From Microcaldota archaeon (GTDB taxonomy: Archaea > Micrarchaeota > Micrarchaeia > Micrarchaeales > CABMGC01), in the NCBI GenBank assembly GCA_021851065.1, contig JAJZJQ010000009.1:1-51912 (forward strand): a stretch of 51,912 bases of DNA. Direction: 5' to 3'. The notes beneath the pieces were generated by a model. The model was not told the DNA's origin and searched no databases. It worked only from the letters and a program-made list of their open reading frames with translations. A program made the position numbers and the translations under genes. Position 1 is the stretch's first letter, and each line of letters opens with the position of its first letter. This document shows positions 24,705 through 41,759 of this stretch, in pieces.

Positions 24705-27113
24705 CTAGAGCTTGAGTTCGTCCAGATCAGATGTGTCTATGAGCTTTAGGTTGCCGTACCCTATGGCAAGCTTTAGCAGCTCGGCATTGCGCCCGTACGA
24801 CCCATACAGCCTGTCCAGAAAGTCCATCCTGCTCTCCTCGTCCAAAAAGACCAGGAAGGTGCGCGACTTTGAGCCCACCTCCACATCCTTCACCTTGGAC
24901 TGTGACGAGTATATCTTTATGAAGCTCTGAGAGCCCTTGCTCGTTATTACCAAGTCGTACTTCTCAGATGACCCCATCTCAGCGAACATCATGGCATTGG
25001 CTATGCAATAGTCCCTGAGCCTCCTGTAGACTGCAAGGTAGTCGATGCCATGGCCTGACTGCTCGGTCCAGGACTTTGGCGCGTAGTAGTCGCCGGCATA
25101 GACCACAAGGCCCTTCTTCATGAGGATGTTAAGCACTGCATAGGTATTGCGCAGGGTTATGGATATGCGCGTATTGCCGTATTTTATGTTGTTGCTTATG
25201 CCTGCCCTCACCTCCTCTGCGGTGAGGGGCATGTACTGCCACCGGTACAGGGTGTTGACGCGGTCAAATACCCCAAGTATTGTGGCAGTGGTCTCCTTGG
25301 CAGTCTCGTGCTGTGCAGGCTTTATGTCCGGCACGTCTACGAAATACTGCTCCACATTGGTTGGGACCAGTATCCTGTTTAGTATTATTACGAAGACTGC
25401 AGCTATGGCGAACTCTATGTATATTGGAGGTATGGTGGGCCCGCTGCTCTTGTTGTTGTAGGGTATGGCATACCTGTCGCCCAGTACATTTATGTAGAAT
25501 GTTCCAGAACTATGCCCAAGCGCTGCTCCTTTGGGCAGCGAATATGTCAGCTCTCCGGCTTCTATTACGCCGCTCCTGTTGTATGCCCCGTTAACGCTTG
25601 CCGTGTACGGGGTGCCTGATATAGGAGCCCCGTTGCTGGAGGCAGTAAATACGAATGTGCTGTTTGCGAAGTTCATCTGCAACGGAGTTATGGCGGCATT
25701 TGCCACCTGAAAGAGGGCAGAGGAGTAGGTGTTGCCCTGCTGGCCGTCCAGCCGGGCTATGTAGTATCCGCTCCTAAGCTGGAATGATGCATAGGAATAC
25801 AGCGCAGACGTGCCTGCCTGGCCCACCCTTACAGGAGGCTGCGGGGCCGCGCTAAGGTTGCTGTAATATACCGGCACGTAGACTATGGCAGCATTGTTGT
25901 GTGTGGAGTTGAACACCTGCGCGCTTATCTGCACCTGCTGTGACTGCCCTACGACAGAAGGCATGCTTATGTCGCCGTTCTGATGCATCACGTACCTGAA
26001 CCCTGATTCGAACTCCTGCGATGTGTTCTGGTTGTACAGCATGAGGGTCAGCAGCCCGTAAGACGAGTTGATTGCTGAGGATGCTTTCGGAGAGTAGGGC
26101 AGCGTGGAGTTGAGCGTGAACAGGGTGTATTCGCCACCTCCTGAAGTGGAGTTGAAATAAAGAGTCTTTGATCCGCTCATAAGCTTTGGTATCCAGTATC
26201 TTGACTCTATGATGGTGGCTAGATCATAGGCCAGCTGCGTGGCGTTGCCGTTCCATCCCACCTGGGGATAATTGCTTAGGGATATGAACGTGCCGTTGAG
26301 TATGTATCCCGAAGTTGCAGTGCCAAAGCTCTGGCCTGGGGAGACGAAGAATGTGGGCGACTTGAAGTAAAGCGGATTAGGAGCGGATGAATTGTAGTAG
26401 GTTGAATTGATTATCGGTATGCCAAGGGCAGACACCGTGGCGTTGCTGTTTTGCACTATCTGCTGGGTGCACGAGACGGACCTTGAGAGGTTCCTGCCGA
26501 CATATATCACTGTGTCGCCTTCCGACAGAAGGCTCAGCACTGTGGTATTGGAGTATCTCTGGCACCCTTCAGTGTAGGTAACGTTTGGCAGAAGTATGTT
26601 CGGCATTAGCCCAGAAGGTATGATAACTATGGCCCCTCTTGGCACAGCGGATATCTTGTTTATGTCTATGTAATTTAGAGTTGTGGAATTGAACAGTACG
26701 CCTTCCTGCGCCATGGTCCTGTTGAGATCGTTTAGCAGTGTTGTTGGAAGGAAGCACTGGACGCAGTAGCCCTGCACGTTAACAAGGTAAACCGGGAGTA
26801 TTGGATTGGACTTGTACAGTGCAAGCTTGGTGTAGCCTGTTGAAGCGCCTGAGCGCGAGTAGTATGCGTTGACATATGCCACCAGCTGCGTTGAGCTGTT
26901 GTAAGTGAGCACCCCGTACGATGAAGTTGAGAGGCTGCCGGATATTGGGCCTGAAGGCATGCTCGAAGGCTTTGGAATCGCAGACAGCTGCGTGTCAACA
27001 TAGTATACCATATACGCCATAACCAGGGCTATTACTGCTACAACGATAAGTATTATCTTTACGCTATGCACGGGGCTGGGCTTATCCTGCTGCGCGATGT
27101 CGATGCCGTTCAT
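24705..27113 (-). CDS. Bitopic surface protein with cytoplasmic C-terminal domain, 802 aa; last gene of secretion-like operon
   Basis: One N-terminal helix (about 19-40, VKIILIVVAVIALVMAYMVY), a roughly 540-residue outside domain rich in Ser, Thr, Asn and sequons, then a second helix (about 588-608, EFAIAAVFVIILNRIL) and a 190-residue cytoplasmic domain (TAEEVRAGISNNIKYGNTRI, YAVLNILMKKGLVVYAGDYY) with winged-helix-like pattern. Two helices put both tails inside. It starts with ATGA overlap to the 56-aa gene and ends the long minus-strand operon. It could be the extracellular contact or sensing component of the apparatus. No known domain was recognised outside. Confidence 0.78.
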   Translation of the reverse strand: MNGIDIAQQDKPSPVHSVKIILIVVAVIALVMAYMVYYVDTQLSAIPKPSSMPSGPISGSLSTSSYGVLTYNSSTQLVAYVNAYYSRSGASTGYTKLALYKSNPILPVYLVNVQGYCVQCFLPTTLLNDLNRTMAQEGVLFNSTTLNYIDINKISAVPRGAIVIIPSGLMPNILLPNVTYTEGCQRYSNTTVLSLLSEGDTVIYVGRNLSRSVSCTQQIVQNSNATVSALGIPIINSTYYNSSAPNPLYFKSPTFFVSPGQSFGTATSGYILNGTFISLSNYPQVGWNGNATQLAYDLATIIESRYWIPKLMSGSKTLYFNSTSGGGEYTLFTLNSTLPYSPKASSAINSSYGLLTLMLYNQNTSQEFESGFRYVMHQNGDISMPSVVGQSQQVQISAQVFNSTHNNAAIVYVPVYYSNLSAAPQPPVRVGQAGTSALYSYASFQLRSGYYIARLDGQQGNTYSSALFQVANAAITPLQMNFANSTFVFTASSNGAPISGTPYTASVNGAYNRSGVIEAGELTYSLPKGAALGHSSGTFYINVLGDRYAIPYNNKSSGPTIPPIYIEFAIAAVFVIILNRILVPTNVEQYFVDVPDIKPAQHETAKETTATILGVFDRVNTLYRWQYMPLTAEEVRAGISNNIKYGNTRISITLRNTYAVLNILMKKGLVVYAGDYYAPKSWTEQSGHGIDYLAVYRRLRDYCIANAMMFAEMGSSEKYDLVITSKGSQSFIKIYSSQSKVKDVEVGSKSRTFLVFLDEESRMDFLDRLYGSYGRNAELLKLAIGYGNLKLIDTSDLDELKL

Positions 27114-27280
27114 CGCCTGGCACCCCTAGACCCGCTGGGCTTCTTGCCCTTGAGCACGTATTTCTGGAGCAGGGACTCGACGTACTTTGAGACGGCGTTG
27201 GTGTTGCCCTTGAGGCTCTTCTTCACAGCATATATCCTCACATAACCGTATTTCTTGTTTATGATGGCAGAGTACGCCAT
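27110..27280 (-). CDS. Small basic protein, 56 aa, in the secretion-like operon
   Basis: MAYSAIINKKYGYVRIYAVK opens a 56-residue, strongly basic protein ending KGKKPSGSRGARR. Its stop shares ATGA with the 802-aa gene, and its start lies 9 bp after the stop of the upstream gene, so it is held tightly in the operon. The N-terminal half looks like two beta strands with a helix (NTNAVSKYVESLLQKYVLKG); the tail is disordered and basic and might bind nucleic acid or acidic phospholipid. No family was recognised. Confidence 0.75.
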   Translation of the reverse strand: MAYSAIINKKYGYVRIYAVKKSLKGNTNAVSKYVESLLQKYVLKGKKPSGSRGARR

Positions 27281-27288
27281 TCCCACAC

Positions 27289-28029
27289 CTATTCCTTCAG
27301 CTCCAGGTAGCCAAGCGACACCATCTTGTCTAACACCTGCTCTACCCGAGTAGGCACCACATCGTGTGCCTTCGAGAACTCCACTATGTCTATCGACCCG
27401 TTGTGGGTGGTTATCCAGTCCTCAACAAGAGCCATGAGAGCCTCGTCGCTGTACTTCTTTAGGGCATTAAGCTGGGCACTTATCGCCTTGTTCTCCTCTG
27501 CCAGCTGCGCAGACTGTATTGCCATGTTCCTGTTTGCAGCAGACACCTCTATCTCCAGCCTCTTTATCTCCCTGTACTCTGTCAGCAGCGAATCGTACCT
27601 GTTGTAAAGCGTGGTATAGCTCTGGGACAGGCCAGAGAGCAGCGAGTCAAGCACGGAGTCGACGTACTGTACGAACTTGAGCTGGTCCACCGAGTATTTG
27701 CCGTCAAGCATGGATATTATTGCGGCAATGCTCTTTAGCACATAGGCCCTCCTTAGACCCACGCTGGAATCCGGGACCAGGGAGTATGTGATATCTATGC
27801 GGTCTGCTTTTATGCTTATTATGTGGAACAGGTAGGGTCGCCTGTTTATGCTCCTGCTCTCCACCTTGATCAGGTCAAGGCTGTCCTGCGACTTCTTGAT
27901 AAGATAGAAGGGCACGTTGCCTATGGCCTGCTTCGCATCATCCAGGGTTCCGCTCAGCCTTCCGTCTAGGGAAAACTCTTCCACTTTTGGCTGCGATACG
28001 TTCTGTGCTTTGGCTGGGGCATCTGCCAC
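27289..28029 (-). CDS. Coiled-coil protein with C-terminal winged helix, 246 aa
   Basis: Residues 1-120 form a globular domain (VPFYLIKKSQDSLDLIKVES, FHIISIKADRIDITYSLVPD). A long coiled coil covers about 130-195 (YREIKRLEIEVSAANRNMAI...). The C-terminus is a winged-helix-like fold (HNGSIDIVEFSKAHDVVPTR, VEQVLDKMVSLGYLEL). No signal or membrane segment is seen, so it is cytoplasmic. The start is GTG at 28029. Placed between the zinc-ribbon and surface-protein genes, it could be a cytoplasmic adaptor of the machine; the winged helix may mediate protein contact rather than DNA binding. Confidence 0.75.
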   Translation of the reverse strand: MADAPAKAQNVSQPKVEEFSLDGRLSGTLDDAKQAIGNVPFYLIKKSQDSLDLIKVESRSINRRPYLFHIISIKADRIDITYSLVPDSSVGLRRAYVLKSIAAIISMLDGKYSVDQLKFVQYVDSVLDSLLSGLSQSYTTLYNRYDSLLTEYREIKRLEIEVSAANRNMAIQSAQLAEENKAISAQLNALKKYSDEALMALVEDWITTHNGSIDIVEFSKAHDVVPTRVEQVLDKMVSLGYLELKE

Positions 28030-28055
28030 TGGAACACCAACAATTAGCTATGGTG

Positions 28056-28448
28056 CTAAGTCTTTTTATAGGCTTTCTTGGCGTTTGGCTTATTCTCCTG
28101 CACATCGGCGACCTCCAGCGCAGGAGTATAGTTAAGCAGAGACAGGGCGTAGAGCACAGCGATAACGATGATGGTTAGGGCAAGCGACACCAATGTGAAG
28201 GATATGAGCAGGCTGAAGATGCCAAAGAGCACACCAAGGGCAACATACATCACCTGCCTTGAGCTGAACCTGTCCCTCCTTTTCTTGTACTGCGCGTAGC
28301 ATCCCCTGCATACTACCAGCCTGTTGCCCTTCTCGTTCTTTGTCACATTCCTCTTAAAGGCCCTTATTGCTTCTATCACGAAGTCGTTCTTCACCACGAG
28401 GCCTTCCTTTCTGTTCCCGCATATTATGCAGTAGCTTTGTTTCATCAT
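28056..28448 (-). CDS. Zinc-ribbon protein with two membrane helices, 130 aa
   Basis: CIICGNRKE (Cys7, Cys10) and VVCRGCYAQYKKRR (CxxC) form a four-Cys zinc ribbon at the N-terminus. Basic residues follow, then two adjacent transmembrane helices (about 68-85 and 88-108: VMYVALGVLFGIFSLLISF, TLVSLALTIIVIAVLYAL) and a short Lys-rich cytoplasmic tail. Both ends are inside. The start overlaps the previous stop by ATGA. It may anchor cytoplasmic components of the apparatus to the membrane. Confidence 0.78.
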   Translation of the reverse strand: MMKQSYCIICGNRKEGLVVKNDFVIEAIRAFKRNVTKNEKGNRLVVCRGCYAQYKKRRDRFSSRQVMYVALGVLFGIFSLLISFTLVSLALTIIVIAVLYALSLLNYTPALEVADVQENKPNAKKAYKKT

Positions 28449-28747
28449 TCATCAACCAATCGTAGCTCTATTATGCGCCCGAAGGCGCCTTTTATCCTCT
28501 CCTCCTCCACTGCGTCCATTATGTTGGATATTGCTATGTCATCTATGCCTGTGCGCCTTAGGACGTTTGCCACATCCTCAGAATGCAGCCCTGCCTTCTG
28601 CAGCATCTCAGCGAAGGCAATTGCGTTTATGTGCCTGTGCATCTTGTCAAGCTGGGCCAGTATGAACTCGGTGTTCTTGTCGCTGACCTTGAAGCTTGCC
28701 AGTACCCTTTTGAAGTCGATCTTGTTTATAGCGAACGTCTCGGCCAC
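28445..28747 (-). CDS. Small helical protein sharing a motif with the ATPase C-terminus, 100 aa
   Basis: A wholly helical, charged protein. Residues 40-78 (INAIAFAEMLQKAGLHSEDV...LRRTGIDDIAISNIM) line up with the last 45 residues of the VirB4-like ATPase encoded just upstream (LKEFVRILLAEMLGKDSIIS...LRSIGISDSIISRAF): F-x-x-x-L, then L-R-x-x-G-I-x-D-x-x-I-S. It starts with GTG 23 bp after the ATPase stop and overlaps the zinc-ribbon gene by ATGA. It may compete with, or dock beside, the ATPase tail. Confidence 0.75.
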   Translation of the reverse strand: MAETFAINKIDFKRVLASFKVSDKNTEFILAQLDKMHRHINAIAFAEMLQKAGLHSEDVANVLRRTGIDDIAISNIMDAVEEERIKGAFGRIIELRLVDE

Positions 28748-28769
28748 TATTCACACCATGAATGCGCAG

Positions 28770-30275
28770 TCACTCGGTATATACGAACGCCCTGCTTATT
28801 ATGCTGTCCGATATGCCTATGCTCCTTAGAAGCGATATTATTGAATCCTTGCCAAGCATCTCGGCAAGCAGTATCCTCACGAACTCCTTGAGGTCGACAA
28901 GCCTGTTCTTGGCTTCCAGCCTCTTGAATATGTCGTCCATGGCGTCGGTGTTTATGCTGTTCTCAACGAACTTTGAGCTCAGAAAGATCTTCTCGAAGGA
29001 GTACTCCTTCTGCAGGTTCTGGTCGCGGTTCTCGGCCTCTGTAAGCATATCCGCAAGTGTCACGGTATATACGTCAAGAGGCACCTCTCCGACAACCCTG
29101 TTGAGCATGAACGTCGATGGGAACTGCGCTGAGGTCTGGAAAGACATGTCTATTGCGGCTTCGCCAACGCCCAGCCTGCTTATCTCCCCGCGTATGAACG
29201 ACGAGAAATTCAGTGAGCCCTGCAGGTAGTCCATAAACTTCTGGAACTTTATGCGCAGTATTATGTTTGTGCCTACGTTTGAGAATATGGCTTCGTTTAT
29301 GTCGGTTGGATTCTGAGACGCCACTATGATGCCGAACTGGTATTTTCTTCCCTCCCTTATTATTGTTATGGCGTCGCTCCTGTTGTCGCTTGCTACCTTC
29401 CACGCCTCGTCAAGAACGATTATGGCCTTTAACCCCTTGTTTGCGCTCCATCCCTCGGCCCTCATCTTCTCTTTGAGGGTCTGGAGTATGAACAGCGCTG
29501 CAAGTGCCCTGAACCTCTCGTCCGGAAGCCCTGAGAGGTCAAGGTCCACAAGCCCAGATGTAACCAGCTGGTCCAGGTCTATGGTGCTCTTCTTGGCGAA
29601 ATAATCCTCGCCCTCCCTTGAGAATTGCCTTAGCCGGTATATGGCGTTCTCAAGCTCTGCGGGATATTCGTATGTGCCCTCCTGCAGCTTCTCAGTCAGC
29701 AGCTGCGCCACGTCCTTTAGTGTAGGCACGTTCTTTGTACGCGAGGGCGCGCTTGCAAGTATGAAGCCTGCGTTCAGATACGCCTGCTCTATTGCTTCTG
29801 CAGTCAGCCTCCTCTGCTCAGGGAAATTTGCTATGTCAGTAAGTATGTCGAGGGAGTTCATTATCTGCTTGGCGCGGTCTATGGGTTTCATCCCCGCAAG
29901 ATCCATTATGTTTATGTAATCGCCCTTGGCAAGCGAGACCACAGTGCCTGCGCTCTGCCTCACCCATCCCTTATATTCCCCTGCCCAGTCTATTATTATG
30001 GCATTTGTGTTCCACACATAGCTTGCGCGTATGAGGAAGGTCTTTATGAAAAAGCTCTTTCCTGACCCGGTTATGCCCACCACGGATATGTGCGGATTGG
30101 TAAGGTTGCCGAAGGTCCATGTGAACGGCACGCCGAACCTGCGCGTTATGCCTACGAAAACCGAGTCCGTTGGGTCGTTTAGGAGATATTCTGAGGGAGG
30201 CTCTGGTGGCCTTGTTATGAATGTTCTCTTCGCCAGCTCATTGCTCATGACTTTCTGTATCTTTATTAGTCCCAT
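28770..30275 (-). CDS. VirB4/HerA-type secretion ATPase, 501 aa
   Basis: Walker A GITGSGKS at 67-74, IIIDWAGEYKGW (93-104) as in HerA/VirB4 (normally D-x-x-G-E-Y), Walker B IIVLDEAWK (284-292) and IIVASQNPTDI (316-326) with the conserved Gln. LDEAW is characteristic of VirB4/TraC rather than FtsK or VirD4. Walker A lies at residue 67, not near 430 as in full VirB4, so the usual N-terminal domain is missing and may be supplied by the two proteins encoded just upstream. It would power assembly or transport at the inner face of the membrane. Residues 455-498 match the next small protein. Confidence 0.9.
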   Translation of the reverse strand: MGLIKIQKVMSNELAKRTFITRPPEPPSEYLLNDPTDSVFVGITRRFGVPFTWTFGNLTNPHISVVGITGSGKSFFIKTFLIRASYVWNTNAIIIDWAGEYKGWVRQSAGTVVSLAKGDYINIMDLAGMKPIDRAKQIMNSLDILTDIANFPEQRRLTAEAIEQAYLNAGFILASAPSRTKNVPTLKDVAQLLTEKLQEGTYEYPAELENAIYRLRQFSREGEDYFAKKSTIDLDQLVTSGLVDLDLSGLPDERFRALAALFILQTLKEKMRAEGWSANKGLKAIIVLDEAWKVASDNRSDAITIIREGRKYQFGIIVASQNPTDINEAIFSNVGTNIILRIKFQKFMDYLQGSLNFSSFIRGEISRLGVGEAAIDMSFQTSAQFPSTFMLNRVVGEVPLDVYTVTLADMLTEAENRDQNLQKEYSFEKIFLSSKFVENSINTDAMDDIFKRLEAKNRLVDLKEFVRILLAEMLGKDSIISLLRSIGISDSIISRAFVYTE

Positions 30276-30285
30276 TCAACCACCA

Positions 30286-31113
30286 TCATTTTTGTACGCC
30301 GAACTCTGATTCTAGCTCCGACAGGGTAGGAACCCTGTAGTTTATGTTGTGCAGCCTGTACAGCTCCCTGCCAATCACGCGGTTTATGCTCAGATCAAAT
30401 ATGTTAAACACTGTTGAGAGGTCGTTAAGCTGGCTTGTGAGCTTATCCAGCGCCTCCTTCTCGCTAATCCCCACTGCAGTGCTCTCTATGTACATCATGC
30501 TGTTGACAGGCTTCTCTCCCTCGCCTATGCGGTCTATCCTCGCCTGTATGACGTTCATCTGCCTTTGCATGGTCTCAAGACCCATGGTATTCGGATTGCT
30601 GCCTTGCGTCTCTCTTGAATACTGGAATTCAAGCAGTCCGCGCTTCGCCTCGAGCTCCTCCCTGTATCGTTGTATCTCCTCGGCTGCGGCTATGACGCTG
30701 TACCTGAACGGAAAGTGTATGTTCATCATCGCCTTCTCCCATTTGCCTGGAGCCTGCGCCAGGGCGGCGCTCTCTTCCTGCACCTGCTCCTGTGCGAATA
30801 CATAGTTGTATATGTTGGCAGTGAGATACCCTGTGGCATAATATATGCCATTTGAGTATTTTATCACTGCGTCCTGGCTTTTTGGTATCATGTAGTCCTT
30901 CGATGGTATTATTGTTATGTTGAGGGCCTTAGTAAAGAGCGGGAAGATTATGAAGTCGGCGAATGCCAAAAGCAGCATTATGCCAATAGCCACTGCGCTG
31001 ATTATGGCTATCGCTATGCCTATTATGCCGAACTTGGCAGCGCTGATCATTGTGATCACTGCTATTAGTACGGACAGCGCAAGATATAGGATAGTTCTCT
31101 CGTCCATCTTCAC
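30286..31113 (-). CDS. Two-TM protein with helical cytoplasmic domain (paralog of next), 275 aa
   Basis: Two closely spaced transmembrane helices at about 7-28 and 30-55 (LYLALSVLIAVITMISAAKF, IGIAIAIISAVAIGIMLLLA) are followed by a cytoplasmic domain: a beta part (IIPSKDYMIPKSQDAVIKYS, GIYYATGYLTANIYNYV) and a long helical part (AAEEIQRYREELEAKRGLLE). The order '2 TM, I-x-P-x-D, IYYATGYL, long helices' repeats in the 279-aa protein upstream. The layout recalls VirB3 (two TM) joined to the N-terminal domain of VirB4. The start is GTG 31113 overlapping the previous stop (GTGA) or ATG 31107. Confidence 0.78.
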   Translation of the reverse strand: MKMDERTILYLALSVLIAVITMISAAKFGIIGIAIAIISAVAIGIMLLLAFADFIIFPLFTKALNITIIPSKDYMIPKSQDAVIKYSNGIYYATGYLTANIYNYVFAQEQVQEESAALAQAPGKWEKAMMNIHFPFRYSVIAAAEEIQRYREELEAKRGLLEFQYSRETQGSNPNTMGLETMQRQMNVIQARIDRIGEGEKPVNSMMYIESTAVGISEKEALDKLTSQLNDLSTVFNIFDLSINRVIGRELYRLHNINYRVPTLSELESEFGVQK

Positions 31114-31949
31114 ATCCCCTTTTCGGCCTGCGCGTATCTCATGAGCTCCGTGGTGGTAGTAGGCGGTATCATGTACTCGGGCTCAAGCAGCACCAGGGCT
31201 TCTGTGCCAGACACTACCGATGCGCTTACGCCAAGGGCCGCGCTTATGCCCGATGAGATCTCGTCGGTCTTCAGTGCTATTAGGTTAAGGGCCTCGTCCT
31301 CCGTGCCGCCTGAGACCGTGACCTGAGCATATACCTCAAGGGCCTGGGAATTTGCCTTGGATACGCTGTCCAGCATGTTGTGCCACATGGTCACCTCGCC
31401 CTTTATTCTGTCCAGGTCCGGTTTCTTTGCCCCCTTCTGCGCCTGCAGGATGCTGTATTTGTTCTCTGCCTCGGCCAGTCGTGTATTTATGCGTGCCAGG
31501 TAGTCGTCCTTGTTTATAGAGTACAGCTGCGATGTTATTCGTATTGGAGTCTTGCTTAGGCTGACTATGCGTGAAAAAAGATTTGCAAAGTTGTAGCTCT
31601 GCTCATCGCTCATCTCTGTTGCGGAGCTGTACACAGGAACTTTTATGAAGGAGGTCGCATACACAGCGTCATCGCCGCGCACGATAACGGCGTTGCCGTT
31701 CTGCGATAAGTAGAATGCATCGCTGGCATCCAGCACTACGCTGCCCCCCTTCATGCGCAGCATGGGGCCGAATAGGTATGAGTAGTAGCGCATTGACATT
31801 GCCAGGATTGCGGCCGCAAGGGCTATAACCGAAAATACGAATGCCACTATGCCAAGGCCTTGGGGCATTGTGCCTGATAGGAAGGCGAATATGAGCCCTA
31901 CTGCAATCATTATTACGAAGGAAGCCTTCTGGCTGTTGCGACTGGCCAA
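31110..31949 (-). CDS. Two-TM protein with helical cytoplasmic domain, 279 aa
   Basis: Two membrane helices lie at about 10-25 and 30-52 (VIMIAVGLIFAFLSGTM, LGIVAFVFSVIALAAAILAM). A cytoplasmic domain follows with GDDAVYATSFIKVPVY, then FANLFSRIVSLSKTPIRITS and the helical INTRLAEAENKYSILQAQKG. It is a paralog of the 275-aa protein encoded just downstream. The 'yatsflkv...F.r.l..l..pirI.s' pattern is like the N-terminal CagE/TrbE/VirB domain of VirB4 proteins, suggesting that these two genes supply parts that are fused to the ATPase elsewhere. TTG at 31949 is the apparent start; no ATG lies nearby before the first helix. Confidence 0.75.
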   Translation of the reverse strand: MASRNSQKASFVIMIAVGLIFAFLSGTMPQGLGIVAFVFSVIALAAAILAMSMRYYSYLFGPMLRMKGGSVVLDASDAFYLSQNGNAVIVRGDDAVYATSFIKVPVYSSATEMSDEQSYNFANLFSRIVSLSKTPIRITSQLYSINKDDYLARINTRLAEAENKYSILQAQKGAKKPDLDRIKGEVTMWHNMLDSVSKANSQALEVYAQVTVSGGTEDEALNLIALKTDEISSGISAALGVSASVVSGTEALVLLEPEYMIPPTTTTELMRYAQAEKGM

Positions 31950-32059
31950 GCAACCACGTTAAGAGTATCGCGATACAATTATTAAATGCTTAGTGTGCCG
32001 CGGGGCTGCATGAATTGGAAAGCAGGCGTGCAGTAGGGCCATGCCGGAAGTTGAAGGGC

Positions 32060-33979: not shown

Positions 33980-33982
33980 ATC

Positions 33983-35077
33983 CTAGACAAGCGCCCTGAG
34001 CCTTCCCGAGGTCTTGGCCATTCCGCCCAGTATCTCTGCTATCTGAGTTATTATTGCATAGGTAAGGGCTATTATCAGTGCCGGGAAGAACAGGATGGAC
34101 AGCCAGAATGCGCCAAATGCGCTGTGAAGCTGATCCACAGTGCTTGCAAGCGGGGATTGGGGGGATAGTGCATTGGTTATCACTCCGCTTCCAGAACCGT
34201 ACCTGTACAATGCCACCTGCTGCTGGGCAAGCTGACTGCTTATGTTGGTCGATGTATATGCATAGGCTATGCCATATAGCGTAGGCATTATGAAATAGAA
34301 GCCTATTGCCATCGCCATCATCATGCCGCCAAGGTTGCGGGTAGGTATAAGGGACCTGAATATTATCCCAGGTATAAGGAATACAGGTATGGCAGCGTAC
34401 ATGAAGAATATGATTAAGTAGTACTGGACGTACAGCGCTATCATTGCCTCGAACATGAACGCGGTTACCACCCATGCAGGCCAGAAGAAGTAGTATTGGA
34501 AGGCCAGGGACCATAGTGGTGGGATAGAGATGTTTTGCTGCCCTATGCCTACTGAAATAGAGACGCCGGCATAACTGTATCCAAGTGCGCCGACGTAGAA
34601 TAGGTGCGACGCCACAGCATAAGTAGAGTTTATGGTAGTAGCCAGGTATGTGAGAGTGGCATCATACGGGTCTATGGCCCCCACGCCCAGATATCCTGGA
34701 AGCAGGCCGAACATTACAGAGCTTATGAATGCAAACAGCAGCACGATCAGTGCAGTTGCAGTTGCTTCGTAAAGCTCCCCCATGCCAAAAGTCCTCAGCT
34801 TGTCATTTCGCAGCGCTATGCCGAACATGAACAGCACTGCGGCTATAGTATATGAAAACGTGACAGCAAGTAGCATGATGGGCAGGTATTTCTGCCACTG
34901 CTGCACCACATACTTGTCCACGTGGCTGCAGTACCATGGCGCAACCTGGTTCACTATACCCCCATTGGTTGGGCTGGCGCAGTAATTTGTCACTATGTTC
35001 TGGGAATGCGCAATCCCGGCAAGAGTGACTGCGAGCACCGCAAACAGGGCTATGTAGATACGGTATGAGGTTCGCAT
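33983..35077 (-). CDS. Polytopic membrane protein, VirB6-like paralog 1, 364 aa
   Basis: Signal peptide-like first helix (IYIALFAVLAVTLAGIAHS), a Cys-containing outside loop, then about six or seven helices. Family marks: YLPIMLLAVTFSYTIAAVLF followed by MGELYEATATALIVLL, and the core PGIIFRSLIPTRNLGGMMMA then MAIGFYFIMPTLYGIAY. The C-terminus ends EILGGMAKTSGRLRALV inside. The same pattern occurs in the five genes upstream. Polytopic proteins with a central R-[ST]-x-P turn and loops outside recall VirB6/TrbL of type IV secretion systems, though similarity to those is only structural. ATG at 35077. Confidence 0.82.
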   Translation of the reverse strand: MRTSYRIYIALFAVLAVTLAGIAHSQNIVTNYCASPTNGGIVNQVAPWYCSHVDKYVVQQWQKYLPIMLLAVTFSYTIAAVLFMFGIALRNDKLRTFGMGELYEATATALIVLLFAFISSVMFGLLPGYLGVGAIDPYDATLTYLATTINSTYAVASHLFYVGALGYSYAGVSISVGIGQQNISIPPLWSLAFQYYFFWPAWVVTAFMFEAMIALYVQYYLIIFFMYAAIPVFLIPGIIFRSLIPTRNLGGMMMAMAIGFYFIMPTLYGIAYAYTSTNISSQLAQQQVALYRYGSGSGVITNALSPQSPLASTVDQLHSAFGAFWLSILFFPALIIALTYAIITQIAEILGGMAKTSGRLRALV

Positions 35078-35084
35078 ATGAGTA

Positions 35085-36245
35085 TCACAATATCCTAGTT
35101 AATAAGGAAAGCAGGTCCATCCTCTCTCCCACTGCCCTTGAGAAGTCGATGATGAAAGCGTCGACTACCACCAGATTTAGAAGCGGTATGAACACAAGGC
35201 CAAGAGAGATGAAGCCGCCGTATACCACAAGAGGCGTGAAAACCAATGTCCACACCGAGCCGGCAATATTGCTTGGTGCGCTAGCACTGAGGATATGCGC
35301 ATTGGACCAGCTTGACGGGCTTACAAGCCCTGCGACTGCACTTACAAGGAAATTGCCAAGTTCGTCTAGCGGTATGCCTACTCCCCCAGTAGTTGCAGTG
35401 GAATGTATCCCTGCAAAGGTTATTGCAGAGTTGGATATCACCACGTCAAGGAATCCGTATGTCATGCTTACCATGAGCGGATAGACTACGCCAAGGCCCA
35501 GGGCAAATGCTATCATGGCCCCGCCGAAGCTCTTTGTTATGCCAAACGACCTTGCGATGAGGCCTATTATCATGAAAACCGAGAAAAGCAGCATTGAGGA
35601 GCTTAGCAGTATCTGCTGTAGGAACGACGCTATGGAAAGGAAGAAGTATACCTGCATGTAAGGCACTATGTACTGGTAGACGATGACTACAGGAAGCACC
35701 TGCACAGCGAACGTGAAATACACCCCGTCCGCGCCTATTTCAGGCATCTGGAACTGCGGTGCAGCGCCGAAGACCACCGAGACCCAGAACATGGCGGTGC
35801 TGAACTGGGACATGTCCTGGTTGTACTGGTACAGGTCGCACAGCGACACCCCGAATATGTCAGCGACATTGGAGTTGTCAGGGCTGGCCTGCACGCCAGA
35901 GGCAGGATTGCATGAAGTTGGCACAAGGCCCACGGATGCCAGCGAAGGGACAGGATTTACGCATACCACCATGGTGGCGAAGCTGATGAATATAAGCGCG
36001 AAGACTATCGTGATCATGGCGTCGTAGACCTTGGCCATGGCCCATACCTTTATGTCGTTTCGGCCAAGAAGCGGGCCAAGCGCATAGAATAGGGCAGCTA
36101 TGCCAATTATCGCCAAAGATGCGAGGATGATTATAGGAAACCATAGGGTGTACCCTGAGGAGAAGAAGGAGGATATGCTGCCGAATCCGCTTGCAATGCT
36201 GCAGGCATTTACCAGAAATATCGGCATCCATGGAAGATACATCAT
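35085..36245 (-). CDS. Polytopic membrane protein, VirB6-like paralog 2, 386 aa
   Basis: Helical throughout, with family marks WFPIIILASLAIIGIAALFY, MAKVYDAMITIVFALIFI and the core IGLIARSFGITKSFGGAMIA then FALGLGVVYPLMVSM. An outside loop carries Cys residues (VCVNPVPSLASVGLVPTSCN). The C-terminal tail (DFSRAVGERMDLLSLLTRIL) is amphipathic and cytoplasmic. This copy has Gly-Ile in place of the Pro of R-[ST]-x-P. It overlaps the upstream gene by 4 bp (ATGA) and is 8 bp from the downstream one. Confidence 0.82.
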   Translation of the reverse strand: MMYLPWMPIFLVNACSIASGFGSISSFFSSGYTLWFPIIILASLAIIGIAALFYALGPLLGRNDIKVWAMAKVYDAMITIVFALIFISFATMVVCVNPVPSLASVGLVPTSCNPASGVQASPDNSNVADIFGVSLCDLYQYNQDMSQFSTAMFWVSVVFGAAPQFQMPEIGADGVYFTFAVQVLPVVIVYQYIVPYMQVYFFLSIASFLQQILLSSSMLLFSVFMIIGLIARSFGITKSFGGAMIAFALGLGVVYPLMVSMTYGFLDVVISNSAITFAGIHSTATTGGVGIPLDELGNFLVSAVAGLVSPSSWSNAHILSASAPSNIAGSVWTLVFTPLVVYGGFISLGLVFIPLLNLVVVDAFIIDFSRAVGERMDLLSLLTRIL

Positions 36246-37471
36246 ACCACCCTGCCCAGCATCCTGGCTCCCTGAAGCGAGGGAGCTCCGAGTATTGTTC
36301 CTATCTTCTCTATCATCTCATATGCTATTATGAGGGCTATTATTAAGCCTATGAGATCAAGGCCTATGAATTCTATGCCATCGGCAAATGCCGCCACGTT
36401 CTCGTAGTAGAGCTTGCCGAAATCAGAATACAGCGAGCCTTTGAGAACCAGGTAGCTGAAGGTAGTCGCAGTGAGGAAGCTGTTTGCATGGCACAGGTCC
36501 CCATAGTTACTGGCAAATGAAGGCTGGCCGCAGAACCCTATCCCGCTAACCCCGCTGATGCCTGGGGCGAATATGAACGGATACATGAGAGCCGGGAAGA
36601 TTATGTAGAATGATATGAATAGGGCTATTAGAGATCCTCCGGCAGGCCTGGTCCAGGGGAATGAGCGCAGGACTATCCCTACATACAGGAACAGGGGGAA
36701 TAGGAAGTATATGAAAAACAGTATGGCCACCATGAACATACCCATGAATATGCTGCTGAAGTAGATTACCTGCTCGTCCCATAGCAGCTGTATCAGAAGC
36801 GCGTCTCCCTGGAATGGGTTGAAGCTTATGCCGCTGCGCAGCTGGTTAGGCATTATCACTACTTTGAAGCCGCCGCCGGGGGGTAAGCTTACAGCGAAGA
36901 TATTGGCCACGAACAGATTCGTGAAGACGCCGAACCAGTTCTCAAGGCCTGCGTCTATTATGCGTGAATTTATGCCGTTGCAAAGGCCTACGTAGATATC
37001 GTGCGCTGCACCAGGGCCTGATGGTATGCTGCCTGAACTGCCGCTTGCGCTTGCACCCTGGTTTATCGTTGCAAAGTTGGAGAAGAAGCTGACTGCAGGA
37101 GAAGCGAACAAGAAGCTGACCCCTATGAACGCTATTATCACAAGGTTTCCAAAACTCTCGAGGAACTCGGCCCTTGCAAAATTCATAGGAGTCTGCAGGT
37201 GGAACGCGAACCCTATGGCGTACGCTATTCCGGCTATGGAGAATATTGCAAGAACTATGAGCAGGGCTATGGACAATAGGCCCCCGAAGCCCGGAATGCC
37301 GAAAGTGCTGCTGTAACCGGTGTACTTGGCAAGAACGCCTGCGTACGGGTTGTAGGTTGGAGGCCCTGTATTCTGGAAGAGAGTGGTGCAGTCGACTACT
37401 GACAGCGCATTGGATATGCTTGAAGCTGCCAGCATTGCGATGACGGCAAGAGCAAGCAGGGTGTATCTCAT
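36242..37471 (-). CDS. Polytopic membrane protein, VirB6-like paralog 3, 409 aa
   Basis: Signal-like first helix (LLALAVIAMLAASSISNALS), family marks LLSIALLIVLAIFSIAGIAY, RAEFLESFGNLVIIAFIG and the core VGIVLRSFPWTRPAGGSLIA then LFISFYIIFPALMYP. The larger outside loops (residues about 125-215 and 300-345) contain Gly/Ser-rich stretches and Cys residues (FCGQPSFASNYGDLCH). It ends IGTILGAPSLQGARMLGRVV. ATG at 37471; ATGA overlap with paralog 2. The loops differ from those of the other copies while the membrane core is kept, suggesting distinct outside contacts. Confidence 0.82.
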   Translation of the reverse strand: MRYTLLALAVIAMLAASSISNALSVVDCTTLFQNTGPPTYNPYAGVLAKYTGYSSTFGIPGFGGLLSIALLIVLAIFSIAGIAYAIGFAFHLQTPMNFARAEFLESFGNLVIIAFIGVSFLFASPAVSFFSNFATINQGASASGSSGSIPSGPGAAHDIYVGLCNGINSRIIDAGLENWFGVFTNLFVANIFAVSLPPGGGFKVVIMPNQLRSGISFNPFQGDALLIQLLWDEQVIYFSSIFMGMFMVAILFFIYFLFPLFLYVGIVLRSFPWTRPAGGSLIALFISFYIIFPALMYPFIFAPGISGVSGIGFCGQPSFASNYGDLCHANSFLTATTFSYLVLKGSLYSDFGKLYYENVAAFADGIEFIGLDLIGLIIALIIAYEMIEKIGTILGAPSLQGARMLGRVV

Positions 37472-37481
37472 AGCATCACGA

Positions 37482-39191
37482 TCATACGAACCTGCTCAGC
37501 CCTATTATGGTGGTCTCGCCGCCCATGAGGGAGGATATCCCGGTTATTGCAGATATCATCATGAGCGCGTTTATTATAGGCAATATGAACGCCGACACAG
37601 AGATTATGCCGTACATATTCACTATTCCGGATATTGCAGCAGTTATGTAATAGGGGCCTACAGTCGTTATGCAATGCCCGGCAAGAGGATTTGAGCCGGT
37701 GATTGCTTGCGCTACGGCTCCGGGTATTAGCAGCGACGGGGCTGCGCCCAGCAGGTTAACGCTGTTGGTGAAGAAGGATAGCAGCACGTCCACAGGCAGA
37801 TTTCCGATCTGGAGGAACTGGTTTGTAAGCTCGATGGATTCGAATGGGAATACAGTGCTGCTGTCGCCGATGTAGCAGGAGTACATGCGCACTATGTCGC
37901 TGGCTTTTGGATAGACGTAGAAGTTGAGTGGCCGCTTTACGTAGCATTCTGGGGCAGACTGCAGCGGATTGCTGCCAGGCGGGTATTCGGCTCCTGGCCC
38001 GTAGCTGCCAAGGTCATTGTATGAGCTGCTGCACGCCGCAAGATTGCCATTGGCGAGATGTGCGTTTATTCCGGAAGGCTCTGGCAGGTCCTTGTAGATG
38101 TAGTTGGCCGGCAAGCTTGTGCTGTCGGTATAGCAATACAGCACGTTTCCCGGAGGGCTGCTGCCGGCATTGGCTAGGCCTGGTACCTGGCCGAATCCGC
38201 ATAGCGCCACGCCTGGAAGCTGCGCGGCCCCTATGAATGGCGTAGAGCTGCTTATGTTGCTTAGCGATGAGTACTCGAATAGGAATATCGCAGGGAAGAT
38301 TACTACTGCAACTATTGTGGCTGCGATTATTAGCCCGCCCACGCGCCGTGTGTATGGTATGGTGCGCAGTATTATTCCCCCGGCTAGCAGGTAAGGCCAG
38401 CCCATAAGAACTATGAGTATTAGGACGAGCTCTATGGTGAACAGGTACATGCTTATGGTGCCCTGAACCAGTATTGACGGCATTACCGTCCTGTGCAGCA
38501 CATAGCCGGCATATGGCTTATAGCCGAGCGTCACTTGCCCAGAACCAAGAAGCGAGACAGTTATGGATGGATTTAGGTTTCTTAGGAAGAAGATCATGCT
38601 TTCGAAGTTGTATATGTAATTGAGCTCGGCAGCTGACTGGTTGGACATGTTGGCTATTATCACATAGGTGGCTGCCAGCCCGTAGTCTATAGTCCTTGTT
38701 ACAGGAGCTATGCCTGCATTGTTGTTTATCAGCCCCTGGCACACGGCAGTAGTTGGGCTGGGAAGGTTGCCACCGTTGCTGTCGTAGTATACGCTGTTGA
38801 ATGTAGTCACAGGCGAGTTGGCAAGGTATACATTGCACATGGATGATACCTGCGACTGTTTGGCCCCGAGTATGTTGGAGAAGCCCAGCCCCTGGCCTGA
38901 GCCTATGAACCAGAACAGCCATATTAGAAGAACCACAAGCAGTATGCTGCCTCCGGCATGCTGCAGCTCGGATACGGCATTGCTCTTCATCCTGGTGTTG
39001 TTTAGCATCCATCCAAGCATATAGTAGACGGATGCCAGGAGCACTGCCAGGGTGGAGGCTATGATAACTATCGGAAGCCAGTTATTGAATACGGAGTATC
39101 CCGTAGCTATTGGGGTAGATTGAGCGAAGGCCATGGCTGGGGCGAATATCACTGCAGCTGCAATAATCGCGATGTAAGTCCTGATTCTCAT
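37482..39191 (-). CDS. Polytopic membrane protein, VirB6-like paralog 4, largest, 569 aa
   Basis: The largest of the six. Signal peptide (YIAIIAAAVIFAPAMAFAQS), family marks WLPIVIIASTLAVLLASVYY, VSELQHAGGSILLVVLLI and the core AGGIILRTIPYTRRVGGLII then TIVAVVIFPAIFLFEY. A long insert (about 325-450) forms an outside domain rich in Gly/Pro/Tyr with Cys residues. The C-terminus is ISSLMGGETTIIGLSRFV. The ATG at 39191 shares ATGA with paralog 5 and has GGGGG just upstream as a possible ribosome site; an upstream TTG at 39203 is less likely. Confidence 0.82.
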   Translation of the reverse strand: MRIRTYIAIIAAAVIFAPAMAFAQSTPIATGYSVFNNWLPIVIIASTLAVLLASVYYMLGWMLNNTRMKSNAVSELQHAGGSILLVVLLIWLFWFIGSGQGLGFSNILGAKQSQVSSMCNVYLANSPVTTFNSVYYDSNGGNLPSPTTAVCQGLINNNAGIAPVTRTIDYGLAATYVIIANMSNQSAAELNYIYNFESMIFFLRNLNPSITVSLLGSGQVTLGYKPYAGYVLHRTVMPSILVQGTISMYLFTIELVLILIVLMGWPYLLAGGIILRTIPYTRRVGGLIIAATIVAVVIFPAIFLFEYSSLSNISSSTPFIGAAQLPGVALCGFGQVPGLANAGSSPPGNVLYCYTDSTSLPANYIYKDLPEPSGINAHLANGNLAACSSSYNDLGSYGPGAEYPPGSNPLQSAPECYVKRPLNFYVYPKASDIVRMYSCYIGDSSTVFPFESIELTNQFLQIGNLPVDVLLSFFTNSVNLLGAAPSLLIPGAVAQAITGSNPLAGHCITTVGPYYITAAISGIVNMYGIISVSAFILPIINALMMISAITGISSLMGGETTIIGLSRFV

Positions 39192-40408
39192 ATATTCCCC
39201 CAAAATGGCCCTACTGCCATAAACCTGCCTACGGAATTAAGCCCCTTGGTGAGACCCATGGCAAAACCCACAGTTATTGCAAGATCAAGGCCTATCAGCA
39301 CTATGCCTTCAAAGATATACTCAGCAGTGTCTATGCCGTACCCGACTATCACCTGCGGCAGATTGATTAGGGTCTGGAACATTAGTGAGACGCCTGTGGT
39401 TAGCCCTCCAACCCCTGAGAAGGAGCCGGTGAAAAATGAATCCGAAGTAGTTACGCCGCTAAACAGCCCGCTGCCTGATGCAAGAGCCTGCGGCTGTGAA
39501 TTGAACAGGTAGTTTAGTGGCGATGACCCGAGGTTGTACGGGTTGGTGTACTGGTTGTATGGGTTGCAGACCATGCCTGCGGCTGTGCACGGAGTGTATA
39601 TCCATGCGACTATGTAAGTGTTCATGAGTATGGCCAGTGGAAGTATGAAGTAAAAGCCTATCGCTATGGCAAGGAAGCTGTCTGCGGACTCCCTGAGCCT
39701 TGGGCCTGCGAATGGTATGGATCGCATTATTATAGCCACAGGCACTATCACAGTAAGCGCCGTGGACTCTATAAGCGCAAGCAGTATGTAAAGCACGAAT
39801 AATACTCCAAATACCACAACCAGCAGCGGTATGAAGGCCAGTGCGAGAGCGCTGCTAAATCCATAGTACACGCCGAACACCCCGCCGCCCAGCTGGGCGT
39901 GTAGCAGGGCCGAGATTGCCGAGTTGATTATCTCCTCTACAGTGCTCCCTATATCTGCGGATATCGTTATGAACACGGCCTCAGAATAGATCTGGGAGAA
40001 CAGCGACAGCCCTCTTGTGAACATTAGGTTGCCTATGTAAAGCTCGGAATACTGGATGGGGTCCTGATAGACTGCGTGCAGCACGCTTGCTGATGAAGCA
40101 GTGAGTGATATGCCTACCTGGCAGGTAGATGCGGCTATCCCTATAAGCACCAATATTATGATCACGGATATTATTCCCTGGAATGCCTCATACCTGGCCG
40201 CGCCCCTGAGCCTCTCGCGCATTGAAACCGGGAAGAAGTTGGCAATGGTGTACACCAGTGCAGATATCATGAACGATGCAAGTATTACAAGAAGATTTAT
40301 CTGGATCCAGCCGTTGGTGTTTAGGGTGCCGTGGGAGGTCACGCTGCCGCCGAATACGCAAGAGTTCGTATAAGCGTTCTGTGTAAGTGCGAGTAGTATC
40401 GGGTACAT
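39188..40408 (-). CDS. Polytopic membrane protein, VirB6-like paralog 5, 406 aa
   Basis: Family marks QINLLVILASFMISALVYTI, AARYEAFQGIISVIIILV and the core VAIIMRSIPFAGPRLRESAD then FLAIAIGFYFILPLAIL. In this copy the GG after the turn is replaced by an RLRESAD insertion. No classic signal peptide is present; the first residues (MYPILLALTQNAYTNSC) are short and Cys-containing. The outside loop near residues 275-320 is Asn/Tyr/Cys-rich. It ends LNSVGRFMAVGPFWGNI. It overlaps paralog 4 by ATGA and follows paralog 6 by 4 bp. Confidence 0.82.
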   Translation of the reverse strand: MYPILLALTQNAYTNSCVFGGSVTSHGTLNTNGWIQINLLVILASFMISALVYTIANFFPVSMRERLRGAARYEAFQGIISVIIILVLIGIAASTCQVGISLTASSASVLHAVYQDPIQYSELYIGNLMFTRGLSLFSQIYSEAVFITISADIGSTVEEIINSAISALLHAQLGGGVFGVYYGFSSALALAFIPLLVVVFGVLFVLYILLALIESTALTVIVPVAIIMRSIPFAGPRLRESADSFLAIAIGFYFILPLAILMNTYIVAWIYTPCTAAGMVCNPYNQYTNPYNLGSSPLNYLFNSQPQALASGSGLFSGVTTSDSFFTGSFSGVGGLTTGVSLMFQTLINLPQVIVGYGIDTAEYIFEGIVLIGLDLAITVGFAMGLTKGLNSVGRFMAVGPFWGNI

Positions 40409-40412
40409 ATTA

Positions 40413-41729
40413 TCAGTGTGCTAGCCTCATCTTGTTTCCCAGGGACAGCTTTATGCTTCCGCCAAACATCCTGGCCAGGTTGTCTACGATAGGGTATACT
40501 ATTATTAGATCCATTGCAAGCAGGACAAACTGTACTATTATGAACAGCCCATATTTAAGCAGCTGGCTCAGGAAGAAGTACATGGCATTGGTGTCGAATA
40601 CCCTTGTACTGTAGGTTATCGCGCTGAGCAGGTTGGCGCCATTGTTAGCTCCGGGGATTGAGCTTGAGCTGAACAAGATGGGCCATACTACGTTGAAGGC
40701 GCACAGGAGAGGGGAGAGTGCAAAGCCGGTAGCCGCGCAGACCGGGCCCCCGGTGAGGGTCGGCGGCGCAGGTTGCTGCAGGTCTATTGCGTTATTTAGC
40801 GCCTGTGTTATTGGATAGTTGAACAGGACAAGTACTGCGGGCATAACTACAGACATGGCAACCCCGATGGCAAGAAGCGTGCCCCCTATGCCCCTTACAA
40901 ATGGCAGAGCGCGCAGCGCGAGGCCAAGAGGTATGAAGAATGACAGCCCGACGTAGACAAGGGCTGGCAGTATATTGATCATGCTCAGCTCCATTGTAGT
41001 GTAGGGGAAAAGTATGAAGTTTACAATGTCGTTGATTACGGAGAAGAATGGGGCTATGTGGTAGTTTCCTGTCTGCAGCGCCCAGTTTGCGAAGGGCAGG
41101 AAGTTCATGCCAAGATACACCGATACAAAGCCCAGTGGGATAGGTATTGAAAGTTTGACCTGGAATGTTGACCAGAAGCCCACGCCTTCGGACATGATCC
41201 CGACAAGTTCCCATGCGTTTATGACATTGTCGTTGACCTGGCATAGGTAGGTCTCGGCATTGCCCACCAAGGAACCAAGACCTATCACCCCTGGCGTGGC
41301 GCCCGAATTTGCCATGTTCGTTATGCCCGTAGCGCTAGGTGTTATCAGGTTGGTTATGTTCCCGACAAGTATCAGTATGGCATATATGCTTACAATTATA
41401 AGCACTGTCTTGGTTATTTCCCAGTATTCGCCCTGCAGCCAATTGCGTAGGCCTGCCTGTGGAAGTATTTTGCTTATGGCATAGGTTATTGCCACTGCGT
41501 CGAAGGAGAGTGTGAGTGCCAGCAGTGCAAGCGCAAGCGAGCCTGAGTAAGAGAAATTATCATTGATGGCCAGGGAGTTGGATGTCATAACCCCGCTTTG
41601 TATAATGCATAGGTTGGGTATTTCTGCGCTGCTGGATGGAAGATATGGCACTGATGCAGATGCTGCATGGGATATGCTAATTAACATAAGCAGGAGTAGC
41701 ACTGCAATAGCAACTGAACCTGTGCGCAT
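40413..41729 (-). CDS. Polytopic membrane protein, VirB6-like paralog 6, first gene of the operon, 438 aa
   Basis: Signal peptide (VAIAVLLLLMLISISHAASA), family marks SGSLALALLALTLSFDAVAI, LQGEYWEITKTVLIIVSI and the core LGLALRALPFVRGIGGTLLA then IGVAMSVVMPAVLVLF. Outside loops carry Cys (VCAATGFALSPLLC). It is the first gene of the 17-kb operon: the TATA-like ATTTTAAAT at 41751-41759 is about 25 bp upstream of the ATG at 41729, predicting a leaderless transcript. It is divergent from the UbiA gene. It ends GGSIKLSLGNKMRLAH. Confidence 0.82.
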   Translation of the reverse strand: MRTGSVAIAVLLLLMLISISHAASASVPYLPSSSAEIPNLCIIQSGVMTSNSLAINDNFSYSGSLALALLALTLSFDAVAITYAISKILPQAGLRNWLQGEYWEITKTVLIIVSIYAILILVGNITNLITPSATGITNMANSGATPGVIGLGSLVGNAETYLCQVNDNVINAWELVGIMSEGVGFWSTFQVKLSIPIPLGFVSVYLGMNFLPFANWALQTGNYHIAPFFSVINDIVNFILFPYTTMELSMINILPALVYVGLSFFIPLGLALRALPFVRGIGGTLLAIGVAMSVVMPAVLVLFNYPITQALNNAIDLQQPAPPTLTGGPVCAATGFALSPLLCAFNVVWPILFSSSSIPGANNGANLLSAITYSTRVFDTNAMYFFLSQLLKYGLFIIVQFVLLAMDLIIVYPIVDNLARMFGGSIKLSLGNKMRLAH

Positions 41730-41750: not shown

Positions 41751-41759
41751 ATTTAAAAT
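41751..41759 (-). promoter_or_regulatory. Promoter of the secretion-like operon
   Basis: On the minus strand ATTTTAAAT lies 22-30 bp upstream of the ATG at 41729, the archaeal spacing for a leaderless start. No equally good TATA box was seen before the internal genes, which are separated by overlaps or short gaps, so this may drive the whole 17-kb unit. Confidence 0.5.

What the first reader, a model, noticed from the sequence alone, without database searches (positions are those of the whole stretch)
24705..41729. A 17-kb, fifteen-gene membrane machine that looks like an undescribed type IV secretion-like apparatus
The genes run the same way with overlaps or short gaps, starting from one clear TATA box. 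Seen: a VirB4/HerA ATPase, six related polytopic proteins, two related two-TM proteins with helical cytoplasmic parts, a Pro-rich membrane protein, a zinc-ribbon two-TM protein and a large bitopic surface protein. Known: VirB4 powers and VirB6/VirB3 anchor type IV secretion. Inference: this is a compact, contact-type or secretion apparatus. No relaxase, VirD4 coupling protein, integrase or plasmid replication gene is present, so conjugation is not the obvious role; attachment to or exchange with a host cell is possible if the organism is a DPANN symbiont.
Basis: partly seen in the sequence, partly recalled or inferred. Interest (0 to 1): 0.88.

Follow-up and report, generated by a model that had tools for sequence, protein, structure and literature searches.

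The report
Micrarchaeal type IV secretion-like machine
Nearly all genomes searched from one group of tiny, probably host-dependent archaea (Micrarchaeota) carry genes for an apparently undescribed relative of bacterial type IV secretion systems, whose membrane channel seems to be built from a fixed set of six different but related proteins, so it may be the device by which these cells exchange large molecules with their partners.

Summary
In detail: fifteen collinear minus-strand genes (24705-41729), including a 56-aa conserved gene, in a Candidatus Micrarchaeota genome. The order A1-A6, B1, B2, ATPase, S, Z, C, L is kept across two families and about 27 genera; B homologues occur in 258 of 295 genomes of the phylum. 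It is a type IV secretion relative. B1/B2 are the VirB4 N-terminal domain made as separate membrane proteins (Foldseek: only VirB4 in the top 14; profile match 94%, E 1e-7). The ATPase matches VirB4 ATPases (99.7%). Z weakly matches VirB3/PrgI. In relatives the operon starts with VirB2-type pilins; in this genome that 5' part lies on another contig. No VirD4, relaxase or ComEC in 31 genomes. New result: the VirB6-like A genes come in arrays of exactly six (47 of 47 complete arrays). Six position-specific clades show that the array and its order predate the class. This suggests a hetero-hexameric channel, unlike the VirB6 pentamers solved so far. Best function: contact-dependent macromolecule exchange with a host or neighbour, import likelier than export; the cargo is unproven. 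The A-to-VirB6 link is the weakest step. Related systems (Ced/Ted, Patescibacteria, nanohaloarchaea) are published; none was found for Micrarchaeota.

The parts
40413..41729 (-). A1, polytopic membrane protein, position 1 of the six-gene VirB6-like array (438 aa)
39188..40408 (-). A2, position 2 (406 aa); residues 36-83 resemble VirB2-type pilin
37482..39203 (-). A3, position 3 (573 aa), largest of the six
36242..37471 (-). A4, position 4 (409 aa)
35085..36245 (-). A5, position 5 (386 aa)
33983..35077 (-). A6, position 6 (364 aa); AlphaFold model, VirB6 among the best but weak fold matches
32060..33979 (-). P, Pro-rich membrane protein (639 aa), at this place only in the genus and nearest relatives
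31110..31949 (-). B1, two TM helices plus VirB4 N-terminal-domain fold (279 aa), TrsD-like
30286..31113 (-). B2, paralog of B1 (275 aa); part of the conserved core in the class
28770..30275 (-). AT, VirB4-type AAA ATPase without its N-terminal domain (501 aa); Walker A/B and other motifs invariant in 33 sequences
28445..28747 (-). S, paralog of the ATPase C-terminal helical domain (100 aa)
28056..28448 (-). Z, zinc-ribbon protein with two hydrophobic helices (130 aa); weak VirB3/PrgI match
27289..28029 (-). C, cytoplasmic coiled-coil protein with a winged-helix-like C-terminus (246 aa)
27110..27280 (-). small basic conserved protein (56 aa), the fifteenth gene
24705..27113 (-). L, bitopic surface protein (802 aa) with a conserved cytoplasmic tail
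41751..41758 (-). TATA-like TTTTAAAT, 22-29 nt upstream of the A1 start codon
   Evidence: sequence shown; function not tested

Best explanation
This is a chromosomal, vertically inherited, domesticated machine of the type IV secretion superfamily, found across Micrarchaeota. Shown by homology: a VirB4-type ATPase motor (AT), the VirB4 N-terminal domain as separate membrane-anchored proteins (B1, B2; TrsD-like), and VirB2-type pilins at the operon start in relatives and elsewhere in this genome. Suggested: Z as the VirB3 equivalent, and A1-A6 as the VirB6-like channel. Inferred mechanism: B1, B2 and Z dock an AT hexamer under a channel ring made of one copy each of A1-A6, on which a short pilin tube is built; L and the large outside loops of the A proteins make contact with a partner cell. 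ATP hydrolysis then moves a macromolecule across the joined envelopes. With no coupling protein and no relaxase it is not a conjugation exporter. Import from the host or a neighbour, nucleic acid being the likeliest cargo, fits best (about 0.4), with effector export about 0.3 and attachment pilus only about 0.2. The confidence given is for a T4SS-family contact machine, not for the cargo.
For: Whole-block synteny in 27 or more loci and a class-wide core B2-AT-(S)-Z-C-L. B profile in 258/295 genomes, 88/96 of the good ones. B1 model against PDB: the top 14 hits are all VirB4/TrwK or R388 inner-membrane-complex chains, best E 7.6e-4, next unrelated hit 0.12; this was predicted in the notebook before the search. 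Profile comparisons with eight Gram-positive T4SS loci pick only the expected partners: B to separate VirB4-NTD protein 94.3% (E 9.9e-8), AT to VirB4 99.7% (E 1.4e-26), pilin to pilin 78.7%, Z to PrgI 59.9%, every other pairing under 9%. Pfam TrbC/VirB2 above cut-off (34.2 against 27.9 bits) in a gene just before the core of a relative. Pilins in 29/31 relatives including this genome. Pilin-like segment in A2, as published for CedA1/CedA (PMC9905601). No VirD4, relaxase or ComEC in 31 genomes. Catalytic motifs invariant. No match in viral contigs.
Against: The A proteins show no sequence similarity to Gram-positive VirB6 profiles, and the fold match to VirB6 is weak (E 0.07 and 0.12, TM about 0.3, a designed protein ranks first). 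The B1 fold match has a low TM-score and large rmsd. The ATPase tree does not resolve VirB4 against HerA-like relatives. The Z-PrgI match is only 60%. No VirB8 candidate was found. The pilin genes are not in this window. Five good genomes of the class lack B. No functional data exist.
Confidence: 0.8

Rival explanations
1. Protein-effector secretion or host-killing system: the machine exports proteins into the host, without a VirD4 coupling protein.
For: Some T4SSs without VirD4 homologues export proteins (the Ptl exception is noted in PMC12102498). A T4SS in nanohaloarchaea was proposed to secrete unknown effectors (PMC10266531). Large outside parts fit cell contact.
Against: No effector-like gene was found in or next to the block, and most T4SS exporters use a coupling protein, absent here in 31 genomes.
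Confidence: 0.3
2. Attachment or nanotube organelle only: the ATPase assembles a pilin or tube that holds the host, and no cargo is moved by this machine.
For: VirB2-type pilins in the operon. A type IV pilus operon stands divergently beside it in the genus. In Patescibacteria host adhesion needs type IV pili (PMC12102498).
Against: Six conserved polytopic proteins are more than a pilus platform needs, and in the studied micrarchaeon-like co-culture the bridging tubes came from the host (PMC11329633).
Confidence: 0.2
3. HerA-type DNA repair or DNA translocation complex anchored at the membrane.
For: The ATPase domain alone is about as close to HerA/CedD models as to VirB4 models. The block ends next to topoisomerase VI B.
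Against: HerA cut-offs are missed by a factor of ten or more; no room for a HAS barrel; the neighbours are pilins, VirB4-NTD proteins and membrane proteins.
Confidence: 0.05
4. Remnant or active conjugative element.
For: T4SS components are mostly encoded by mobile elements in bacteria, and gene exchange by conjugative elements was suggested for the ARMAN archaeon Mia14 (PMC5498576).
Against: No relaxase or VirD4 in 31 genomes, fixed chromosomal place beside topoisomerase VI B, vertical pattern of the ATPase tree within the class, no viral-contig match.
Confidence: 0.03

Closest known systems
Patescibacterial and Gram-positive (MPF_FATA, CD1110-type) T4SS (PMC12102498; plasmid loci L158-L165)
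   Same: VirB4 ATPase with part of its N-terminal domain on a separate membrane protein (TrsD in PMC12102498), VirB3/PrgI and pilin genes alongside, mostly no relaxase, small host-dependent cells; T4SS essential for epibiotic growth in one strain
   Different: Archaeal; two TM helices and often two copies of the NTD protein; ATPase keeps no NTD; zinc ribbon on the VirB3-like protein; six VirB6-like paralogs without sequence match to VirB6; extra conserved C, S, L and small genes
Ced and Ted DNA-import systems of Thermoproteota (PMC9905601, PMC11868833)
   Same: Chromosomal, VirB2/VirB4/VirB6-like parts, no relaxase; VirB4 NTD divided between proteins (CedB, CedD); pilin-like segment in the channel protein
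   Different: CedB and CedD keep NTD and ATPase in one chain; one or two CedA proteins, not six; AT fails the CedB (59 of 700 bits) and CedD (73.8 of 600) cut-offs
Nanohaloarchaeal SPEARE plus VirB4 locus (PMC10266531)
   Same: DPANN T4SS-like system proposed for host interaction, with a giant surface protein
   Different: There an ATPase domain is fused to the giant protein and VirB4 carries its PF03135 domain; here neither is so
Rickettsiales vir homolog T4SS (PMC2653234) and R388 (PMC9259494)
   Same: Several VirB6 paralogs in Rickettsia (five); VirB4 hexamer of dimers in R388
   Different: Five not six; R388 VirB6 is a homopentamer; outer-membrane parts, VirB8-VirB11 and VirD4 are lacking here or not found

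Membership tests
Type IV secretion superfamily | VirB4-type ATPase with intact catalytic motifs | tested here: met
   tree placement unresolved
Type IV secretion superfamily | VirB4 N-terminal domain, joined or separate (TrsD-like) | tested here: met
   Foldseek; profile match 94.3%
Type IV secretion superfamily | VirB2-type pilin | tested here: met
   Pfam TrbC above cut-off in a relative's operon; own genome on contigs C32 and C30, not in the window
Type IV secretion superfamily | VirB6-type channel protein | tested here: inconclusive
   fold rank 2-3 with weak E; no profile match to VirB6, pilin-like segment in A2
Type IV secretion superfamily | VirB3/PrgI | tested here: inconclusive
   Z to PrgI 59.9%, all other families 1.4% or less; Pfam PrgI E 0.023
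Type IV secretion superfamily | VirB8 | tested here: inconclusive
   single R388 VirB8 sequence matched nothing; no fold search of the other proteins possible
Conjugative T4SS | relaxase and VirD4 coupling protein | tested here: not met
   0 of 31 genomes for PF02534 and PF03432; other relaxase families not tested
Ced system | CedB or CedD equivalog | tested here: not met
   59 of 700 and 73.8 of 600 bits
Ced system | DNA import under DNA damage | not testable with these tools
   needs a co-culture experiment
HerA repair helicase | HerA equivalog score and N-terminal HAS barrel | tested here: not met
   51.9 of 800 and 49 of 970 bits; P-loop at residues 67-74
MPF_FATA class | VirB4 phylogenetic place inside the class | tested here: inconclusive
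   AT is its own clade (98/98) with weak deep support
Nanohaloarchaeal SPEARE system | ATPase domain in the giant surface protein | tested here: not met
   no ATPase domain in L

The most novel reading that the evidence does not exclude
A hetero-hexameric secretion or import channel: one copy each of six ancient, order-fixed VirB6-like paralogs forms a ring that matches the six-fold VirB4 motor, replacing the pentamer known from bacterial systems; most Micrarchaeota outside the window's order have two such sets, one of them followed by a giant surface lipoprotein, perhaps giving two partner-specific channels driven by shared motors.
Probability: 0.45. Interest if true: 0.92.

Novelty: new variant of a known kind. 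Interest (0 to 1): 0.8.

Why it matters
How DPANN archaea take what they lack from their hosts is an open question. This gives Micrarchaeota a near-universal, conserved candidate machine with named parts, making the question testable in co-cultures. It parallels the Patescibacterial T4SS that is essential for epibiotic growth (PMC12102498), so two unrelated lineages of tiny host-dependent cells would have recruited the same machine family. The exact-six rule, if it reflects a hetero-hexamer, would be a new channel architecture for T4SSs, whose solved VirB6 rings are pentamers (PMC9259494, PMC12857230).

Tried and rejected
Pfam, NCBIfam and PHROGs on the single proteins: only the ATPase gave solid hits. 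HMM search of B and A alignments against PDB sequences: nothing specific. hhalign of A families against single R388, F and Bacteroidota T4SS proteins and against Gram-positive VirB6 sets: no signal. B against single VirB4 sequences: no signal until a set of eight NTD proteins was built. ATPase tree to decide VirB4 against HerA: unresolved because of long branches. Type IV pilus operon as a fixed neighbour: true in the genus and one nearby genus only, so not used as a defining feature. OMP decarboxylase family as a sign of nucleotide need: present in 10 of 31 genomes including this one, so weak support for nucleotide import. Window-wide Rfam: one tRNA only. Conjugative element and viral origin rejected.
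Full report
What is there. The block at 24705-41729 is a run of fifteen minus-strand genes. I name them in order of transcription A1-A6 (polytopic), P (Pro-rich), B1, B2 (two TM plus soluble domain), AT (ATPase), S, Z, C, a 56-aa gene, and L (surface protein). Close relatives are named Candidatus Micrarchaeota, nearly all metagenome-assembled genomes. The genome is 1.13 Mb in 36 contigs, 87.5% complete.

Conservation. L was found in 38 of 40 relatives. With ortholog profiles, A1-A2-A3-A4-A5-A6-(P)-B1-B2-AT-S-Z-C-L appears in the same order in nearly all relatives of two families. In the wider class a core B2-AT-(S)-Z-C-L is kept. The B profile matches 258 of 295 genomes of the phylum and 88 of 96 of the more complete ones.

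Paralogy inside the block. The six A proteins are all homologous pairwise (97-99% hhalign probability), B1 with B2 (98%), and S with residues 427-507 of AT (97.5%).

Identification. The ATPase has the VirB4/HerA core from residue 57 on and no N-terminal domain. I proposed in the notebook that the missing VirB4 N-terminal domain sits in B1/B2. The AlphaFold model of B1 (pLDDT 86) then hit only VirB4 or R388 inner-membrane chains in its top 14 PDB matches, best E 7.6e-4, the next at 0.12. TM-scores are low (about 0.3) and rmsd large, so I sought independent support. Eight Gram-positive plasmid T4SS loci encode pilin, PrgI, a separate VirB4-NTD protein and a VirB4 ATPase in a row. Profile comparison against these gave B to NTD protein 94.3% (E 9.9e-8), AT to VirB4 ATPase 99.7% (E 1.4e-26), Z to PrgI 59.9%, micrarchaeal pilin to pilin 78.7%, with no other pairing above 9%. 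hhalign E-values are for single comparisons; the clean diagonal is the control. A separate NTD protein is known as TrsD (PMC12102498).

Pilins. Small proteins of 104-145 aa with a signal-peptide-like start and two further hydrophobic helices stand at the operon start in many relatives. One passes the Pfam TrbC/VirB2 cut-off, and several others have TrbC or T4SS_pilin as best hit. They occur in 29 of 31 relatives. In the genus the order is pilin - 12-TM protein - M245 - A1. In this genome two pilins, the 12-TM protein and M245 sit on contig C32 while the window has a UbiA gene before A1: the operon is broken here.

The A proteins. The A6 model is good (pLDDT 89). VirB6 of R388 ranks second and third in PDB, but weakly (E 0.07, 0.12). 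There is no profile match to VirB6. A2 carries a pilin-like segment (90.7%, E 1.2e-6), the same relation reported for CedA1 with CedA and VirB2 with VirB6 (PMC9905601). I call them VirB6-like, with that reservation.

The rule of six. A genes occur in arrays. In 44 complete arrays (23 in the order, 21 elsewhere in the class) the number is exactly six. Three more complete arrays fetched afterwards also have six, and the incomplete ones run to contig ends. Single A genes were seen only in a minor locus with B, AT and C. A tree of 180 A proteins from 30 arrays puts them into six position clades: 10 label changes, 5 the minimum, shuffled mean 117. Position-specific profiles agree (0 of 20,000 permutations as good). 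So six paralogs in this order existed before the class diversified. Most families outside the window's order have two arrays, one of them followed by a large lipoprotein-like protein of about 1,280-1,500 aa. The arrays were picked from clusters seen in a search, so the 47 of 47 is not a random sample, but no array of another number was seen away from contig ends.

Function. No VirD4, relaxase (PF03432) or ComEC in 31 genomes. AT motifs are invariant. Archaeal systems with VirB4-type motors but no relaxase (Ced, Ted) import DNA (PMC9905601, PMC11868833). In a Patescibacterium the T4SS is essential for growth on the host (PMC12102498). Micrarchaeota were reported to lack nucleotide synthesis (PMC5864196), though a protein of one pyrimidine gene family is present in this genome. 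I therefore commit to contact-dependent macromolecule exchange, import more likely than export. This is inference.

Novelty. Searches of the held library found no description of a T4SS in Micrarchaeota. A T4SS-like system was proposed in nanohaloarchaea (PMC10266531), and the archaeal Ced/Ted kind is known. So it is a new variant of a known kind, with one feature, the fixed six-paralog channel set, that I have not seen described. The library lacks most subscription papers and preprints.

Noticed in passing
G000 contig C30 (L067:550-7502): A second, smaller copy of the machine in the same genome: pilin, one A, one B, a shortened AT, a C-like gene and a 740-aa second ATPase; similar minor loci in L099-L101.
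   Followed up: partly
L167, L169, L179, L181, L182, L184: Giant proteins (about 1,280-1,500 aa) with a lipobox-like start follow the second A array in class-level genomes.
   Followed up: partly
L193, L197, L110, L109: A type IV pilus operon (T2SSE, two T2SSF) stands divergently beside the pilin end of the operon in the genus and one neighbour genus.
   Followed up: partly
window 22960-24630: Topoisomerase VI B subunit converges with L; a gene of similar size and orientation stays the neighbour in many relatives.
   Followed up: no
window 44889-46286: Protein with a nickel-dependent hydrogenase domain (Pfam E 1.4e-22), not obviously expected in a reduced genome.
   Followed up: no
L066:637-1980: IS605-type TnpB with Cas12f1-like domain beside a TIM-barrel AP endonuclease family gene and a HerA-like ATPase.
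   Followed up: no
L053 (G036): AT-S-Z-C-L kept but without A and B genes upstream; the operon is split in this genome too.
   Followed up: no
L036 (G020): Rearranged copy: L and C lie upstream of B1-B2-AT-S-Z.
   Followed up: no
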